Below the pieces are notes generated by a model. The model searched no databases, was not told the DNA's origin, and was given only the letters and a program-made list of their open reading frames with translations. 21,637 nucleotides of DNA from a virus. This document shows, piece after piece, positions 10,106 through 19,503 of this stretch. Made by a program: the position numbers and the translations under genes. The stretch's first letter is position 1; every line of letters starts with the position of its first letter. The DNA is taken from positions 1 to 21,637 of IMG/VR virus record IMGVR_UViG_3300022752_000448; one strand, given 5' to 3'.

Positions 10106-10546
10106 ATGAGTAATTGGTTGTATCAAAACAAAGTTATAGATAAAATAGAAGATTTTCCTGAAGGGTGTTTTGGTTTTGTTTACAAAATTACTAACCTCCA
10201 GACTAACCAATTTTACATTGGTAAAAAGTTTTTAACCCATAAAAAAACTAAAAAATTAGGAAAAAAAGCATTATTAACACAAACAGGCCCTGGTCGTAAA
10301 AAAACAAAAGAAATTACATTTTCTGAAAGTGACTGGAAAACATATTGGGGTAGTTGTAAACCTTTATTAGAAGATGTTAAAACTTTAGGTGAACATTTAT
10401 TTTATAAAGAAATACTTGAATTTGCCTTTACATCAAAACACTTATCTTATTTAGAGGCTAAACACCAATTTGTTACTAATTGTCTAGAAATAAATAGCTA
10501 TAACGATAACATACAAGCTCGTTATTATCGTAAAGATTTGCCCTAA
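10106..10546 (+). CDS. GIY-YIG endonuclease-like protein (SegE-like)
   Basis: The 146-residue protein has a GIY-YIG core: GFVYKITN (residues 23-30), FYIGKKFL (36-43), a basic stretch (THKKTKKLGKKALL) and a possible catalytic Glu in LSYLEAKHQF (residue 117). The spacer with SDWKTYWGSC and the KEIL segment fit the SegE-like phage group. Proteins of this group either cut DNA as free-standing homing endonucleases or have been taken over for phage DNA processing; which applies here cannot be told. No NUMOD DNA-binding repeats follow, unlike the gene downstream. It starts 4 nt after the last tail gene, so it may be co-transcribed with structural genes, and is followed by a 107-nt non-coding stretch. 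Confidence 0.8.
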   Translation: MSNWLYQNKVIDKIEDFPEGCFGFVYKITNLQTNQFYIGKKFLTHKKTKKLGKKALLTQTGPGRKKTKEITFSESDWKTYWGSCKPLLEDVKTLGEHLFYKEILEFAFTSKHLSYLEAKHQFVTNCLEINSYNDNIQARYYRKDLP

Positions 10547-10547
10547 G

Positions 10548-10572
10548 TTTTATTATTATATTTATAATAAAA
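10548..10572 (+). terminator. A/T-only inverted repeat overlapping ATATTTATAATAA motif, copy 2
   Basis: Two bases after the stop codon of the SegE-like gene, TTTTATTAT (10548-10556) pairs with ATAATAAAA (10564-10572) around a 7-nt loop. The exact 13-mer ATATTTATAATAA lies at 10558-10570. An A/T-only stem is weak, so this may be a 3'-end signal or a consequence of the shared motif. Confidence 0.35.
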
Positions 10573-10594
10573 TTAAATAAAAATATTTAAAGTT

Positions 10595-10620
10595 AAACTT
10601 GAGAAACTAAGTTTTCTTTG
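10595..10620 (+). terminator. Small stem-loop followed by T-rich run
   Basis: AAACTT (10595-10600) and AAGTTT (10609-10614) are complementary around the loop GAGAAACT. The 3' arm continues into TTCTTTG. This resembles a weak intrinsic terminator. A similar ACTTG...CAAGTTTTG element lies at 12964-12984 before another gene, so the element may be conserved. Strength is uncertain because the stem is short and A/T-rich. Confidence 0.35.
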
Positions 10621-10640
10621 TTATATTATGATTATGTTCA

Positions 10641-10653
10641 ATATTTATAATTA
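10641..10653 (+). promoter_or_regulatory. ATATTTATAATTA motif directly before homing endonuclease start
   Basis: A near copy of the recurring intergenic motif ends immediately before the ATG at 10654. TATTTATA at 10642-10649 leaves only 4 nt before the start codon. If it acted as a -10 box, the transcript would be essentially leaderless. Confidence 0.35.
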
Positions 10654-11259
10654 ATGGATAAAAAAACTAATATATATTACTTACATAATGGTGACAATGT
10701 TCCTTTTTATATAGGAAAAACAGTTCAAAAACCATCAAAACGATTAAATAATCATAAAAAAGTTTTTGGAAATAATACATTATTAGAAGTTATAAATATA
10801 GTTGAAAATAATAATTGGTTATTTTGGGAAAAACATTATATTTCTTTATTTAAATTTTGGGGTTTTAATCTAAAAAATAAAAATGAAGGTGGAGGAGGAT
10901 GTATAACTCATGAAGTATCAAAATCTGCTAGAGAAAAAATAAGTAAAACTCATAAAAATCTTAAAAAACCATTTACTGAGTCTCATAAAATAAACCATAA
11001 AAATTCTTATAAGAACAGAAATGTAACTTGGGGAGATAAAATATCAGAAAGATTAAAAGGCAGAAAAATAACATGGGAACAAGGAAATGTAGGAAAACCA
11101 TCTTCACCAATTAACCAGTATGATTTAGAAGGAAATTTTATTAAAAAATGGGATAATATAAAAGATCCTTCTTTAATTTATAAATGTTATATAAGTGGTT
11201 GTCTTAAAGGAAGGCAAAAAACAGCTGGAGGTTATATTTGGGAATATGCAAATAAATGA
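10654..11259 (+). CDS. Free-standing GIY-YIG homing endonuclease with NUMOD-type DNA-binding repeats
   Basis: This is a site-specific DNA endonuclease of the selfish homing type. The catalytic GIY-YIG domain occupies about residues 5-75: IYYLHN (7-12), FYIGKT (18-23), Arg30, Glu59 and FNLKN (71-75), all the expected catalytic elements. Residues about 88-145 contain NUMOD3-like helices (SAREKISKTHKN, GDKISERLKGRKITW). Residues about 152-199 resemble NUMOD1 or the common terminal HTH-like domain (PINQYDLEGNFIKKWDNI, then GYIWEY). The gene is very A-rich and Lys/Asn-rich. It appears inserted between the SegE-like gene and the primase, and its last 14 nt overlap the start of the primase gene. The open frame looks intact. 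It is the best candidate for a recently mobile element here. Confidence 0.9.
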   Translation: MDKKTNIYYLHNGDNVPFYIGKTVQKPSKRLNNHKKVFGNNTLLEVINIVENNNWLFWEKHYISLFKFWGFNLKNKNEGGGGCITHEVSKSAREKISKTHKNLKKPFTESHKINHKNSYKNRNVTWGDKISERLKGRKITWEQGNVGKPSSPINQYDLEGNFIKKWDNIKDPSLIYKCYISGCLKGRQKTAGGYIWEYANK

Positions 11260-13001: not shown

Positions 13002-13799
13002 ATGATCAAACTAACAGATTTATTAAGAGAAGTTATAAATAACCCAAAAGCCATAATCATGGCTGGCGGTGCATCAGTTGGTAAATCAACAGTACTAAAA
13101 TCGTTACAACCCGTATTAAAAGGATTTGTAGACTTAAATGCTGACAAATATGTTGAAGATAAAGATTCTCCAATGTATGGTAATTTATCTGCTGCCTCTG
13201 TTCAAATAAAAAAAACGGATTTACCTAACACTATTGACAACCAACAAAATCTTATTTACGACACTACAGCTTCTAATTTATCAACCCTTCAACCTACATT
13301 AGACATGTTAAATGATAAAGGGTATGAAATAATGATGATAATGGTTTATGCTCACCCCATAGTATCATTTTTAAGAAACTATAAACGTGAACGTAAAGTA
13401 CCAGCAGTTGGTGTTTTAGGAACATGGGTTAATGTTTATAATTTATTAGAAGAATATAAAAATATATTTGGTGATAATTTTGTATTAGTACATACACCTG
13501 CTAGTTCCGAAGAACAAACAGAAATAGATAATTTTGAATCTGCTTATCAACAGGGTACTTTAAAAGAATACTTCTCAGATCTATTATCTTCAGGTCAATT
13601 TCAATCAACCTTTAGAAAAAGTGATGTTGGTTTATCACCTGAAGAATTAGAAAAACGAGAAAAAGACAGAGCCAAAACTAAAATTGTTTTAGAAAAAAAC
13701 ATAGATAAAATAGCTGATACATACGAAAATATCCAATCAAATTTAACCCCAGTTGATATGAAAGAATTGCCTAACATTGTTAAAAATTTTGTTAGATGA
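13002..13799 (+). CDS. Zeta-toxin-like P-loop kinase with capsid-targeting-like leader
   Basis: The 265-residue protein carries a Walker A loop AGGASVGKST (residues 21-30), a VDLNADKYVED segment (Asp48) and IYDTTAS (Asp87). Later come basic residues in FLRNYKRERKV (Arg125, Arg129, Arg131), in the order expected for zeta-toxin/AAA-type small-molecule kinases. Zeta proteins phosphorylate UDP-N-acetyl sugars; relatives phosphorylate other small molecules or nucleic acids, so the substrate is unknown. The first ten residues, MIKLTDLLRE, end in LRE and nearly repeat those of the HAD gene at 15597 (MIKLTDLLKE). I interpret this as a T4-like capsid-targeting leader with a prohead-protease site. The C-terminal ~60 residues are charged and helical. 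No antitoxin gene is adjacent. The next gene overlaps by 4 nt. Confidence 0.82.
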   Translation: MIKLTDLLREVINNPKAIIMAGGASVGKSTVLKSLQPVLKGFVDLNADKYVEDKDSPMYGNLSAASVQIKKTDLPNTIDNQQNLIYDTTASNLSTLQPTLDMLNDKGYEIMMIMVYAHPIVSFLRNYKRERKVPAVGVLGTWVNVYNLLEEYKNIFGDNFVLVHTPASSEEQTEIDNFESAYQQGTLKEYFSDLLSSGQFQSTFRKSDVGLSPEELEKREKDRAKTKIVLEKNIDKIADTYENIQSNLTPVDMKELPNIVKNFVR

Positions 13800-15604
13800 A
13801 ATCATTAGTAAAATCACTTATAACACCGTTTTTAGCAGAAGTTGATATTCCTGTTCCAACTAAAACAATAGGTGTATTTGGAGGTGGGTTTCAACCACCA
13901 ACAAAAGGCCATTTTGAAGTTGTTAAAAAAGCATTAGAATACCCTAACATAAACGAATTTAACATTTATGTTGGTACAGGTGGAGGCAGATCAGAAACAA
14001 TTACCCAAGAACAATCAGTGGCAATTTGGAATATATATAAAAATTATTTACCTAGTATAGTAAATATTATTCCAACAGATAATCCAATTACTTCAATTTA
14101 TTCTTTAGCTAAAAATGAACCTGACACTCAAATCAAATGGTTTTTAGGGTCACGTGAAGGTAAAGAAGAAGATTTTGCTGATTTTGAAAAACGTACCAAA
14201 TCTGCTTTAGGCAAAACAAATATTGAACCCATCAACATTATAACTTCAGATGGTATTAGTGGTACTAAAGCTAGAGCAGTATTAGACGATAAAGAAAAAT
14301 TATTTGCTTATTTGCCTGACATTGAAGAAACAGATAAAGAACAAATATACTCTATTCTACACCCAGTAGAAGAAGGAGAAGAAATAACAAATTTTCTTGA
14401 AGAAAAAATTCAAGGTGATAGTATAGTTTGTGATAATTGTGGTTGGACATGGAAAATAGAGGATGGCGGAAACGATTTATTTATTTGTCACAAATGTGGA
14501 CATGATAATACTCCTAAAAAAGAAACAACTAATTTCTTTGAACCATTACAAAACCAAGACATAGACATTAAAATATCTTCAGAACCTACTAGAGTTGACT
14601 ATTATAAAGACCATATTAAAAATGTAGTACCATCTGATTTTAAAGTTGAAAAACATAAAGATAAAATAGTAGTTTCTAACATTTCTAAACCAGGACTAGA
14701 ACATAACCCTGAATTTAAAGATAAATTAGTATCATTAACATTGTCTATGATAGATAATGGTATAAACATTGAACCGTTACCCGATTTAGTTTTTATAGAA
14801 GATGATAAGAAAAATGCAAACAACATATTAGGACGTACTGCTCATTATGACCCTAATAATAAATGTATTACTTTATACACTTATGGTCGTCATCCTAAAG
14901 ACATATTACGTTCATACGCTCATGAAATGATTCATCACATGCAAAATCTTGAGGGTAGAATTCATGGTATTGAAGGACAAAACATAAATGAAGATGAATA
15001 TCTAAAAGAATTAGAATTAGAAGCATATAGTAAAGGCAATATGTGTTTTAGAGGATGGGAAAATTCACTTAAAGAAAATATTAATGAATGGATTATTGAT
15101 ATTCCAAAATTTAATCAACCTAAAACATTTATAGATAATTTACGTGAATCTTTAAATGAAATTGTTTTGTCTAAAGAAAATGCAGTTGATATAGAGGGAA
15201 GTTTAACCGATGGACAATTTGTAGTAGGAGACCAAAAATATATTTATAAAATTAAAGAATTTCCAACACCTCCATATTACGACCCAGGTGTATTCTACAA
15301 TATAGAATTTTATCCTGAAGGAAACATAAGTTCAGAACCGCAAGGAGGAAAAGAAAATTATGTAAAAATATTATCTACTATGTATAAAATAATAGTAGAT
15401 TTTACTGAACAAGAAAAACCAAAATACATAGGTATTGCTTCTCTTGATAATGAAGGAAGCAAAAGTTACCATACAGTATATGCTAATTTAACAGACAATA
15501 AATTTAACAGAATACCTGGATACTTTAGAAAAGATGTATCTTTAAAATTTGATGGGCCTAGGGGAAAAGGAAAAATGATAGTACTAAAAAGAAAAGATGA
15601 TTAA
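13796..15604 (+). CDS. Nucleotidyltransferase / zinc ribbon / metallopeptidase fusion (602 aa)
   Basis: The leader MKSLVKSLITPFLAE (LAE at 13-15) resembles a capsid-targeting signal. Residues ~23-190 form a HxGH-type cytidylyl/adenylyltransferase fold: GVFGGGFQPPTKGHF (TKGH at 36-39) and ISGTKAR (154-160). Residues ~208-240 are a zinc ribbon (CDNC 212-215, CHKC 231-234), a linker I have seen in other marine phage proteins. A zincin-like domain follows, with HEMIHH at 376-381 and ELEA at 407-410 as the likely third-ligand region, so a gluzincin-type peptidase is plausible. A second leader-like helix ending SLNE (452-455) precedes a distinct C-terminal domain of ~147 residues of unknown function. 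Four-domain fusions of this kind are unusual. ATGA overlap with the kinase and 8-nt overlap with the phosphatase indicate one operon. Substrates are unknown. Confidence 0.85.
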   Translation: MKSLVKSLITPFLAEVDIPVPTKTIGVFGGGFQPPTKGHFEVVKKALEYPNINEFNIYVGTGGGRSETITQEQSVAIWNIYKNYLPSIVNIIPTDNPITSIYSLAKNEPDTQIKWFLGSREGKEEDFADFEKRTKSALGKTNIEPINIITSDGISGTKARAVLDDKEKLFAYLPDIEETDKEQIYSILHPVEEGEEITNFLEEKIQGDSIVCDNCGWTWKIEDGGNDLFICHKCGHDNTPKKETTNFFEPLQNQDIDIKISSEPTRVDYYKDHIKNVVPSDFKVEKHKDKIVVSNISKPGLEHNPEFKDKLVSLTLSMIDNGINIEPLPDLVFIEDDKKNANNILGRTAHYDPNNKCITLYTYGRHPKDILRSYAHEMIHHMQNLEGRIHGIEGQNINEDEYLKELELEAYSKGNMCFRGWENSLKENINEWIIDIPKFNQPKTFIDNLRESLNEIVLSKENAVDIEGSLTDGQFVVGDQKYIYKIKEFPTPPYYDPGVFYNIEFYPEGNISSEPQGGKENYVKILSTMYKIIVDFTEQEKPKYIGIASLDNEGSKSYHTVYANLTDNKFNRIPGYFRKDVSLKFDGPRGKGKMIVLKRKDD

Positions 15605-16166
15605 ATTAACTGATTTATTAAAAGAAGTAGAAGATCAAAAATATACTATCTATTGTGACATGGATGGAGTATTAGTAGACTTTGATAAGGGTTATAAGGA
15701 TTTAACAGGAATGTCTACTAAAAAAGCTAATACGTATCCTAAAATGTTTTTTTGGAGATTTTTTAGAAAGAAATTAAAAGAAAAAAAAATGGATGAAAAA
15801 GATTTTTGGGCTAATTTAGAATCTTATCCTGGAAAAGAAGAATTATGGTCCTATATATCACCATACAAACCAAATATACTTTCATCCCCATCAATAGACT
15901 TTAAACTCCCTCCAAATCAACAACTTGACCCAGAGTATAATGAAGCTATTCAGGGTAAAAAAGCATGGATTTCAAATAATTTAAATAATGTAAATAAAGA
16001 AATTTTTGTTCCTGCCTCTCAAAAACAACAATTTTCTGGCGAAAATAAAATACTTATAGACGATAGAGAAGACAATATAGAACAATGGAAAAGTAAGGGA
16101 GGAATAGGTATCCTTCACACTTCTGCTTCTGACACAATTAAACAATTAAAAGAATTAAAATTATGA
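15597..16166 (+). CDS. HAD-family 5'-nucleotidase-like phosphatase with capsid-targeting-like leader
   Basis: The 189-residue protein has HAD motif I, YCDMDGVLVDFD (nucleophile Asp21, acid Asp23), a possible motif II Ser in ILSSPS (94-99), a conserved-looking Lys region (GKKAWISNNL) and motif IV KILIDDREDNIEQW (Asp155/Asp156). This fits the 5'(3')-deoxyribonucleotidase-like branch, which removes phosphate from nucleotides. The first ten residues, MIKLTDLLKE, differ from those of the zeta-like kinase only at Arg9/Lys9, although the enzymes are unrelated. That points to a shared, transplantable leader ending in an LKE cleavage site. The gene overlaps the upstream fusion gene by 8 nt and the downstream small gene by 4 nt. 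Confidence 0.87.
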   Translation: MIKLTDLLKEVEDQKYTIYCDMDGVLVDFDKGYKDLTGMSTKKANTYPKMFFWRFFRKKLKEKKMDEKDFWANLESYPGKEELWSYISPYKPNILSSPSIDFKLPPNQQLDPEYNEAIQGKKAWISNNLNNVNKEIFVPASQKQQFSGENKILIDDREDNIEQWKSKGGIGILHTSASDTIKQLKELKL

Positions 16167-16504
16167 AAAAATCACAATTACAACAGATTATTAAAGAAGA
16201 AATTCAAAAAGTATTAAATGAAAACAAAGCTAATGATTTAAAAAATTTTATTAAAACAAATAAAGAAGAAGTAATAAACCAATTAAATCAAAGAGAAAAA
16301 AAGAACAAAGACGCTAAAACCATTGATTTTAACATAATATATACTAAAGGAGACAAGGTTTATGCGGAGAGAGATTATCTTCCTATTGGAGAAACAAATA
16401 AAGAAAATACAAGTCTAGATGAAATATCATTTAGTAAAACTACAGGTAAATACGAAATAACAGTATATGGACAAATATTGAAATATTCAATATATAATAT
16501 ATAA
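16163..16504 (+). CDS. Small protein with capsid-targeting-like leader (113 aa)
   Basis: The start MKKSQLQQIIKEEIQKVLNE (residues 1-20) is an amphipathic helix with two (I/L)xE sites (IKE at 10-12, LNE at 18-20), the clearest leader of the set. The remainder is Lys/Asn-rich at first, then a small beta-patterned domain (TIDFNIIYTKGDKVYAERDY and KTTGKYEITVYGQILKYSIY). No catalytic motif is visible. Cleavage would leave a basic mature protein of about 93 residues, comparable in size with T4 internal proteins. ATGA overlap with the HAD gene ties it to the same operon. Function unknown; an internal head protein is the working guess. Confidence 0.72.
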   Translation: MKKSQLQQIIKEEIQKVLNENKANDLKNFIKTNKEEVINQLNQREKKNKDAKTIDFNIIYTKGDKVYAERDYLPIGETNKENTSLDEISFSKTTGKYEITVYGQILKYSIYNI

Positions 16505-18840: not shown

Positions 18841-19503
18841 ATGCCCTACGAAAGAAAAGGAAAATGCATATACAATAAAAAAACAGGCGAAAAAAAAGGC
18901 TGTTCATCCTCTGTGGGAAAAGCAAAATCTCATATGAGGGCTTTGTATGCTGCTGAAAAGGGTAGTATTAAAGAAGAAACAAGTAAAATTACACAAGCAA
19001 TTCTAGACAGAGCAGAAGACATTTACCAGGCTATGAAAGCCTCTTCTGGTAGAAAAGCTGTAAAAAAATATGGAGCGGATGCTGAAGATGTGTTACGTGG
19101 TAGAGCAATGAACATAGCTAAAAAACAAGTCAAAATGAAAAACACAGACAGACTAAAAGAAATTATTAAAGATGCTTTAAGTGAGAAAAAAAATAAAAAA
19201 TTTCCTGATTTAACAGGTGATGGTAAAGTAACTAAAGCTGATATTTTAAAGGGAAGAGGCGTTGAGTTAAAAGAAGAAGAACTTGATTATGAAGGTGAAA
19301 TGGCTAAATCTGAACTTCTTCGCATCATGCAAAATGCTCAAATGTTAATGTCTTCACTTGATGATGATACACAATTAGAAGCATGGGTACAAAGCAAAAT
19401 TACTAAAGCAGCTGATTACTTAAATTCAGTAACCCAATACTTAACATATCAAAATACAAAACAAGGCCCTGTTGATGAAGAGGCCTATTATTTAGACAAA
19501 TAA
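18841..19503 (+). CDS. Modular phage structural/core protein with Ca-binding-like loop (220 aa)
   Basis: Residues 1-40 (MPYERKGKCIYNKKTGEKKG, then CSSSVGKAKSHMRALYAAEK) form a small basic Cys-containing module known to me from other phage proteins. Residues ~48-100 (ILDRAEDIYQAMKASSGRKA, then KKYGADAEDVLRGRAM) are helical. From Met99 a leader-like segment RLKEIIKDALSE (104-115) appears, followed by DLTGDGKVTKADILKG (123-138), an EF-hand/dockerin-like Asp-rich loop. Residues ~150-205 (MAKSELLRIMQNAQMLMSSL, then AWVQSKITKAADYLNSVTQY) are helical and seem conserved in marine phages. The gene starts 13 nt after the terminator hairpin and ends one nt before the next ATG. It looks like a composite of two proteins. 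A capsid-associated role is inferred. Confidence 0.78.
   Translation: MPYERKGKCIYNKKTGEKKGCSSSVGKAKSHMRALYAAEKGSIKEETSKITQAILDRAEDIYQAMKASSGRKAVKKYGADAEDVLRGRAMNIAKKQVKMKNTDRLKEIIKDALSEKKNKKFPDLTGDGKVTKADILKGRGVELKEEELDYEGEMAKSELLRIMQNAQMLMSSLDDDTQLEAWVQSKITKAADYLNSVTQYLTYQNTKQGPVDEEAYYLDK

What the first reader, a model, noticed from the sequence alone, without database searches (positions are those of the whole stretch)
13002..16166. Overlapping kinase, nucleotidyltransferase-peptidase and phosphatase genes: a possible injected effector operon
A zeta-like P-loop kinase, a nucleotidyltransferase/zinc ribbon/metallopeptidase fusion and a HAD nucleotidase overlap by 4-8 nt, and each starts with a leader ending in LxE. 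Kinase plus HAD phosphatase recalls polynucleotide kinase-phosphatase chemistry; the added transferase and peptidase could modify host nucleotides, RNA ends or proteins at once on infection, as Alt does in T4. No antitoxin is present, so keeping the kinase inside proheads could itself limit toxicity. This is a hypothesis built on gene content and order.
Basis: partly seen in the sequence, partly recalled or inferred. Interest (0 to 1): 0.7.

Follow-up and report, generated by a model that had tools for sequence, protein, structure and literature searches.

The report
Phage-packaged enzyme trio beside head genes
Three overlapping phage genes encode a kinase, a nucleotide-joining enzyme with a peptidase attached, and a phosphatase; their start tags match the signal phage T4 uses to load proteins into its head, so the phage probably injects this ready-made enzyme set into the bacterium, though what it does there is unknown.

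Summary
In detail: three intact ORFs at 13002-16166 overlap by 4 and 8 nt, and a fourth overlaps by 4 nt. Kinase, adenylyltransferase/metallopeptidase and HAD nucleotidase form a conserved co-translated module in T4-type phages related to Flavobacterium phage immuto (all three in 51/51 testable kinase-seeded loci). Active sites are kept. Relatives encode gp21, and a cyanophage cytidylyltransferase starting MKKFSAFLNE|A was found in virions by mass spectrometry. Genes inserted in the module reuse the leader; one matches ART-PolyVal, an injected-effector family. Weak points: about a fifth of the adenylyltransferases lack a leader; virion presence in this lineage is unmeasured; the substrate is unknown. 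PNKP-like chemistry is not supported: the HAD is NT5C-type and the kinase acceptor site lacks the PNK arginine. A zeta toxin-antitoxin pair is not supported either. Best reading: capsid-packaged, probably ejected nucleotide- or dinucleotide-modifying enzymes. New variant of a known kind (T4 internal proteins, polyvalent effectors).

The parts
13002..13031 (+). Leader of the kinase, MIKLTDLLRE, predicted capsid targeting sequence cut after E10
   Evidence: E10 72/72, [LI]8 72/72, L4 69/72, L7 63/72 in non-redundant kinases; 5, 6, 9, 11-14 variable; same register as T4 IPII/IPIII
13002..13799 (+). Zeta/PNK-clan P-loop kinase, 265 aa; Walker A at 13065-13088, N46-x-D48, D87-x-T89, lid R129/R131
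   Evidence: PF06414; AF2 pLDDT 92 with zeta, CthPnk, PSTK and AvrRxo1 as neighbours; invariant active site
13796..13840 (+). Leader of the fusion protein, MKSLVKSLITPFLAE
   Evidence: LxE leader in 70 of 94 non-redundant homologues; 20 have no room for one, 4 carry an N-terminal domain
13859..14371 (+). HxGH-type adenylyl/cytidylyltransferase domain (GGGFQPPTKGH at 13880-13912, GISGTKAR at 14252-14275)
   Evidence: AF2 fold matches PPAT (Z 17.6) and NadD (Z 14.6); profile matches MJ0541 NMNAT and PPAT
14429..14497 (+). Zinc-ribbon-like CDNC...CHKC
   Evidence: sequence; weak DZR and DUF5817 matches
14669..15073 (+). Zincin-like metallopeptidase domain; HEMIHH at 14921-14938, downstream Glu ligand
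   Evidence: H376, E377, H380, E407 invariant in 34 homologues; 97 sequences
15146..15595 (+). C-terminal DUF6934-like domain
   Evidence: homologous domains match PF22028 down to E=1e-9
15597..15626 (+). Leader of the HAD protein, MIKLTDLLKE
   Evidence: 57 of 63 non-redundant standalone homologues have a leader
15597..16166 (+). HAD 5'-nucleotidase of the NT5C / deoxyribonucleotidase type, 189 aa
   Evidence: PF06941; PHROG 2643; DxDG, K121, K143, DD155-156 conserved
16163..16504 (+). Fourth overlapping leader-bearing gene (MKKSQLQQIIKE...), function unknown, 113 aa
   Evidence: 4-nt overlap; strict leader pattern

Best explanation
A co-translated module of three active enzymes that are loaded into the prohead core by T4-type N-terminal capsid targeting sequences, clipped by the gp21-type prohead protease after the leader Glu, kept in the head with the DNA and ejected into the host at infection. 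There they act at once on nucleotides or dinucleotide cofactors: a zeta/PNK-clan kinase, an NMNAT/PPAT-type adenylyltransferase and an NT5C nucleotidase. The peptidase in the middle protein most likely trims the polypeptide or a host protein. Shown: the genes, overlaps, conservation, active sites and leader register. Supported only through a homologue: presence in virions. Inferred: cleavage, ejection and substrate class. If a substrate must be named, NAD-type dinucleotides and their precursors are the first choice (about 0.25), because an NMNAT-like fold sits beside a kinase whose structural neighbours include AvrRxo1, an NAD kinase.
For: Conserved module: 51 of 51 testable kinase-seeded loci have the adenylyltransferase, peptidase and HAD downstream, 47 with kinase/transferase overlap, and the commonest spacing is -4. 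Leader columns match T4 CTS residues 4, 7, 8, 10 (PMC9026906); the same pattern recovers IPII, IPIII and gp2 in T4. Relatives encode gp21 and gp23, with predicted L/I/V-x-E sites in MCP, scaffold and protease. Leader genes are enriched in immuto's accessory cluster, 7/15 against 0.43 expected, and not significantly in its replication/metabolism genes, 5/109 against 2.6. A homologous cytidylyltransferase was detected in S-SM1 virions (PMC3037559) and begins MKKFSAFLNE|A. An ART-PolyVal gene and other genes inserted in the module carry the same leader. Standalone HAD proteins have leaders in 57/63.
Against: 20 of 94 non-redundant adenylyltransferases have no room for a leader. No proteomics was found for this lineage. 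The S-SM1 protein belongs to a divergent subfamily without the peptidase domain. The module is nearly universal in its group, which is less typical of arms-race effectors. The leader can indicate packaging but not ejection. HTVC008M homologues have weaker leaders.
Confidence: 0.6

Rival explanations
1. The proteins are packaged through the leader but serve the head itself, as enzymatically active core components or assembly factors, and are not host effectors.
For: Same leader motif on scaffold, protease and MCP; near-universal conservation of the module.
Against: Conserved catalytic residues in all enzymes; an ART-PolyVal gene shares the slot and the leader.
Confidence: 0.17
2. The proteins are ordinary late cytosolic nucleotide or NAD salvage enzymes and the leader is unrelated to packaging.
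For: NMNAT plus P-loop kinase resembles NadR; phages carry NAD salvage genes (PMC9503650); 20/94 transferases lack a leader.
Against: Leader register and position-specific conservation; a leader-bearing homologue in virions; the kinase matches the zeta/PNK clan.
Confidence: 0.13
3. Polynucleotide end healing: the kinase and phosphatase repair or block host RNA or DNA ends, as T4 Pnkp does.
For: CthPnk is the closest VIA-align structure (Z 14.5) and Pnkp1 a profile match; the N-x-D and D-x-T motifs are PNK-like.
Against: The HAD is NT5C-type; the position of the PNK acceptor arginine is hydrophobic, V/Y/F/I (role of that arginine from general knowledge); no ligase or CCA enzyme in the window module.
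Confidence: 0.07
4. A zeta toxin proper that phosphorylates UDP-GlcNAc to weaken the wall during entry or stop host growth.
For: PF06414 E=1.4e-13; zeta toxin is Foldseek's first match; zeta-like kinases fused to phage MuF were proposed to act on the wall (PMC5512222).
Against: Low identity; the acceptor-side motif follows PNK (DxT) and not the E-G-T of zeta; no antitoxin.
Confidence: 0.05

Closest known systems
T4 internal proteins IPI-IPIII and Alt with capsid targeting sequences cleaved by gp21
   Same: N-terminal leader of about 10 residues with the same critical positions 4, 7, 8, 10 and L/I-x-E; gp21-type protease in relatives; genes near head genes
   Different: Cargo is a conserved three-enzyme operon without ART or IP similarity; virion presence not measured here
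Polyvalent proteins of phages and conjugative elements (PMC5512222)
   Same: Fusions of zincin peptidase, nucleotidyltransferase, zeta-like kinase and ART domains predicted to be injected
   Different: Separate or partly fused overlapping genes with T4-type leaders instead of one giant polypeptide or MuF/portal fusion; HxGH adenylyltransferase and NT5C not named there in the passages read
Cyanophage virion cytidylyltransferase T4-GC190 (S-SM1 SSM1_190, PMC3037559)
   Same: HxGH transferase with leader MKKFSAFLNE|A, detected in virions
   Different: Divergent subfamily, no peptidase domain and no kinase gene beside it, function unassigned
Flavobacterium phage immuto gp088-gp087
   Same: Adenylyltransferase-peptidase fusion followed by leader-bearing NT5C, after primase and exonuclease as in the window
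   Different: Kinase replaced by Pol-beta-type nucleotidyltransferase domains
Epsilon/zeta toxins and AvrRxo1 (kinase fold)
   Same: Fold and catalytic Asp
   Different: No antitoxin or chaperone gene; acceptor-site motifs differ from zeta

Membership tests
T4-type capsid-targeted (CTS) gp21 substrates | N-terminal leader with targeting residues 4 and 7 and processing residues 8 and 10 ([LI]-x-E) | tested here: met
   Kinase columns 4, 7, 8, 10 conserved, others variable; T4 IPII/IPIII recovered by the same pattern
T4-type capsid-targeted (CTS) gp21 substrates | gp21-type prohead protease encoded by the same phage | tested here: met
   PF03420 in five long relatives and annotated in immuto; the window itself is a fragment and was not shown to hold it
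T4-type capsid-targeted (CTS) gp21 substrates | Leader kept in all homologues of each of the three proteins | tested here: not met
   Kinase 72/72 and HAD 57/63, but adenylyltransferase only 70 of 94; the window's own three proteins all have it
T4-type capsid-targeted (CTS) gp21 substrates | Processed protein found in the virion | not testable with these tools
   Only a divergent homologue in S-SM1 is known
Polyvalent proteins | Several unrelated effector domains in one injected polypeptide, often with a zincin peptidase | tested here: inconclusive
   Fusion has transferase, ribbon, peptidase and DUF6934; in relatives fused with HAD, Pol-beta NTase or SOD; injection untested
Epsilon/zeta toxin-antitoxin | Adjacent antitoxin gene | tested here: not met
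   Upstream ORF is an exonuclease homologue; downstream the kinase overlaps the adenylyltransferase
Epsilon/zeta toxin-antitoxin | Walker A and catalytic Asp | tested here: met
   G27-K28 and D48 invariant
Polynucleotide kinase-phosphatase | Kinase acceptor-phosphate Arg three residues after the catalytic Asp | tested here: not met
   Position 51 is V/Y/F/I in 72 sequences; role of that Arg from general knowledge
Polynucleotide kinase-phosphatase | PNKP-type HAD 3'-phosphatase | tested here: not met
   HAD matches NT5C and PHROG 2643; PNK PHROG 415 only E=0.014
NMN adenylyltransferase (NadM/NadR/NadD) | HxGH and SGTxxR motifs with a curated-level match | tested here: inconclusive
   Motifs present and fold matches, but no NCBIfam model reaches its cut-off for the window protein and PPAT fits equally well

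The most novel reading that the evidence does not exclude
A virion-delivered NAD-type cassette: kinase, adenylyltransferase and nucleotidase injected together to rebuild or rewire the host dinucleotide pool before any phage gene is expressed, defeating NAD-depleting defences or poisoning host NAD.
Probability: 0.18. Interest if true: 0.82.

Novelty: new variant of a known kind. Interest (0 to 1): 0.62.

Why it matters
If right, a widespread group of T4-type phages (hundreds of environmental contigs and one cultured Flavobacterium phage) delivers a conserved set of nucleotide enzymes inside the head. Leader grammar would let injected proteins be recognised from sequence alone across T4-like phages, and it suggests a role for the unexplained cytidylyltransferase in cyanophage virions. 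It makes the question of what T4-type phages inject, beyond Alt and the internal proteins, directly testable in a cultured phage.

Tried and rejected
Polynucleotide kinase-phosphatase and epsilon/zeta toxin-antitoxin memberships (see tests). NadR-type kinase: NadR did not appear among the PDB sequence hits of the kinase profile, which is absence only. Internal leader-like motifs before the HAD in fused forms: 13 of 18 have one there, but such motifs are common by chance and few of the fusions are independent, so no polyprotein claim is made. Weak RegB and Tox-ART-HYD1 matches in relatives are below cut-offs and are not used. The peptidase and DUF6934 parts of the model were not searched alone (model pTM 0.36); no fold statement is made for them. 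A search of the papers for the literal T4 leader found nothing; the sequence was read from the T4 record instead. A first, looser leader pattern was replaced by the stricter T4-register pattern.

Full report
Observation. The three ORFs exist as described. Kinase 13002-13799 and fusion 13796-15604 overlap by 4 nt, fusion and HAD 15597-16166 by 8 nt, HAD and the next ORF 16163-16504 by 4 nt. The window is the whole of a virus record of 21,637 bases, clearly a genome fragment, so head genes and protease must be taken from relatives.

Domains. The kinase matches Zeta_toxin PF06414 at E=1.4e-13. A structure model built on 60 homologues is good (pLDDT 92, pTM 0.86). Foldseek ranks zeta toxin and PezT first and Clostridium PNK next; VIA-align gives CthPnk Z 14.5, O-phosphoseryl-tRNA kinase 13.7, zeta 12.0 and AvrRxo1, a zeta-like effector that phosphorylates NAD, 12.0 (PMC5491322). 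K28, N46, D48, D87, N126, R129, R131 and W142 are invariant. The fusion protein has an HxGH adenylyl/cytidylyltransferase domain (PPAT Z 17.6, NadD Z 14.6; best PDB profile match MJ0541 NMNAT), a CxxC ribbon, a zincin with invariant H376-E377-H380 and E407 and a C-terminal DUF6934-like domain. No NCBIfam NMNAT or PPAT model reaches its cut-off for the window protein, so the substrate is open. The HAD is NT5C with its catalytic residues conserved.

Module conservation. Relatives were fetched from IMG/VR with each protein and scanned with iterated profiles. Of 51 kinase-seeded loci with at least 4.5 kb downstream, all 51 have the adenylyltransferase, peptidase and HAD, and 47 keep the kinase/transferase overlap; -4 is the commonest spacing (99 loci). 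These loci are not all independent; 72 kinases remain after redundancy removal. Of 48 transferase-seeded loci 38 have the kinase; 8 of the 10 without it have a long N-terminal extension on the transferase instead, recognised as a Pol-beta-type nucleotidyltransferase in L174 and L136 and similar by eye in immuto. Domain borders move: HAD fused to the transferase-peptidase, or transferase alone followed by peptidase-HAD. Flavobacterium phage immuto keeps the order primase, exonuclease, transferase-peptidase fusion, NT5C, and Pelagibacter phage HTVC008M has kinase and cytidyltransferase adjacent and NT5C four genes on.

Leaders. In 72 non-redundant kinases E10 is invariant, position 8 is L or I in all, L4 is kept in 69 and L7 in 63, while 5, 6, 9 and 11-14 vary. 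Kinase starts with upstream extensions were trimmed at MI[KSRGLP][LFI], which biases positions 1-4 but not 7, 8 or 10. In T4 IPIII, mutagenesis placed targeting mainly at residues 4 and 7 and processing at 8 and 10, and gp21 cuts after L/I-x-E (PMC9026906). The T4 leaders read from the record are MKTYQEFIAE|A (IPII, IPIII), the same register. A strict pattern in that register finds IPII, IPIII and the DNA-end protein gp2 in 60-82 kb of T4, finds the three window genes and the next one, and in immuto hits 7 of 15 genes in the 101-119 kb accessory cluster (0.43 expected) against 5 of 109 replication/metabolism genes (2.6 expected). gp21-type proteases occur in five of eight long relatives searched, gp23 in six of nine, and their capsid proteins, scaffolds and proteases carry [LIV]-x-E sequences that I read as likely cleavage sites (not measured). 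Standalone HADs have leaders in 57 of 63; the transferase in 70 of 94, with 20 starting directly at the domain.

Virion evidence from relatives. Sullivan et al. 2010 detected a putative citidylyltransferase, T4-GC190, in purified S-SM1 virions (PMC3037559). The genome record marks SSM1_190 as T4-GC190, and it begins MKKFSAFLNE|AERS, hydrophobic at 4, 7, 8 and E at 10. So a leader-bearing HxGH transferase of a T4-like phage is a virion protein. It is a divergent relative without the peptidase.

Effector context. In several loci extra genes sit between kinase and transferase or before the HAD, and many begin with the same kind of leader. One, in L067, matches ART-PolyVal, the ADP-ribosyltransferase of polyvalent proteins (E=9e-7, just under the curated cut-off). 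A scan found 284 further leader-bearing ORFs in 51 sequence clusters. Polyvalent proteins combine zincin peptidases, nucleotidyltransferases, ARTs and zeta-like kinases and are predicted to be injected; their peptidases are thought to process the polypeptide (PMC5512222). This is the closest published idea.

Mechanism. I hold packaging at about 0.75, ejection at about 0.6 and an NAD-type substrate at about 0.25. The acceptor side of the kinase looks like PNK (D-x-T) but the PNK arginine position is hydrophobic, and the HAD is not PNKP-type, so end healing is unlikely. No antitoxin is present; keeping the kinase in proheads as a safety measure is possible but untested.

Limits. Start codons in loci are mechanical; loci were chosen by similarity to the window; the fusion model has low pTM (0.36); no proteomics or biochemistry was possible.

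Noticed in passing
L062:1485-5402: A 1306-aa transferase-peptidase fusion contains a full Fe/Mn superoxide dismutase (Pfam E=9e-30), possibly a packaged SOD.
   Followed up: no
L067:8831-9364: ART-PolyVal domain gene with leader MIKLIDILKE inserted between kinase and adenylyltransferase.
   Followed up: partly
L157:1372-6213: Several nearby genes with different bodies all start MEN-FDLKKFLVENKLT-NS, a second shared leader family.
   Followed up: no
L002:13218-16851 (immuto gp089, gp088): Pol-beta-type nucleotidyltransferase-like domains stand where the kinase is in other relatives; 8 of 10 kinase-less loci have this kind of extension.
   Followed up: partly
L078:2651-3235: Leader gene MIKLSKILLE... 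of unknown family inserted between kinase and transferase in three loci with identical copies.
   Followed up: no
L074:10175-10540: Separate small metallopeptidase-like ORF (VHEYQH) between transferase and HAD.
   Followed up: no
L198:24569-24994: Immuto gene in the replication/metabolism region starts MIKLIDLLTE|S, a perfect leader far from the head genes; possibly another packaged protein.
   Followed up: no
window 10106-11259: Two ORFs with GIY-YIG-like starts (FGFVYKIT..YIGKK; NIYYLHN..FYIGKT) between tail genes and primase, perhaps homing endonucleases; read by eye only.
   Followed up: no
window 18841-19503: ORF with a dockerin/EF-hand-like DLTGDGKVTKADIL motif (Pfam Dockerin E=0.01); a similar motif is in an immuto protein of the same region.
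   Followed up: no
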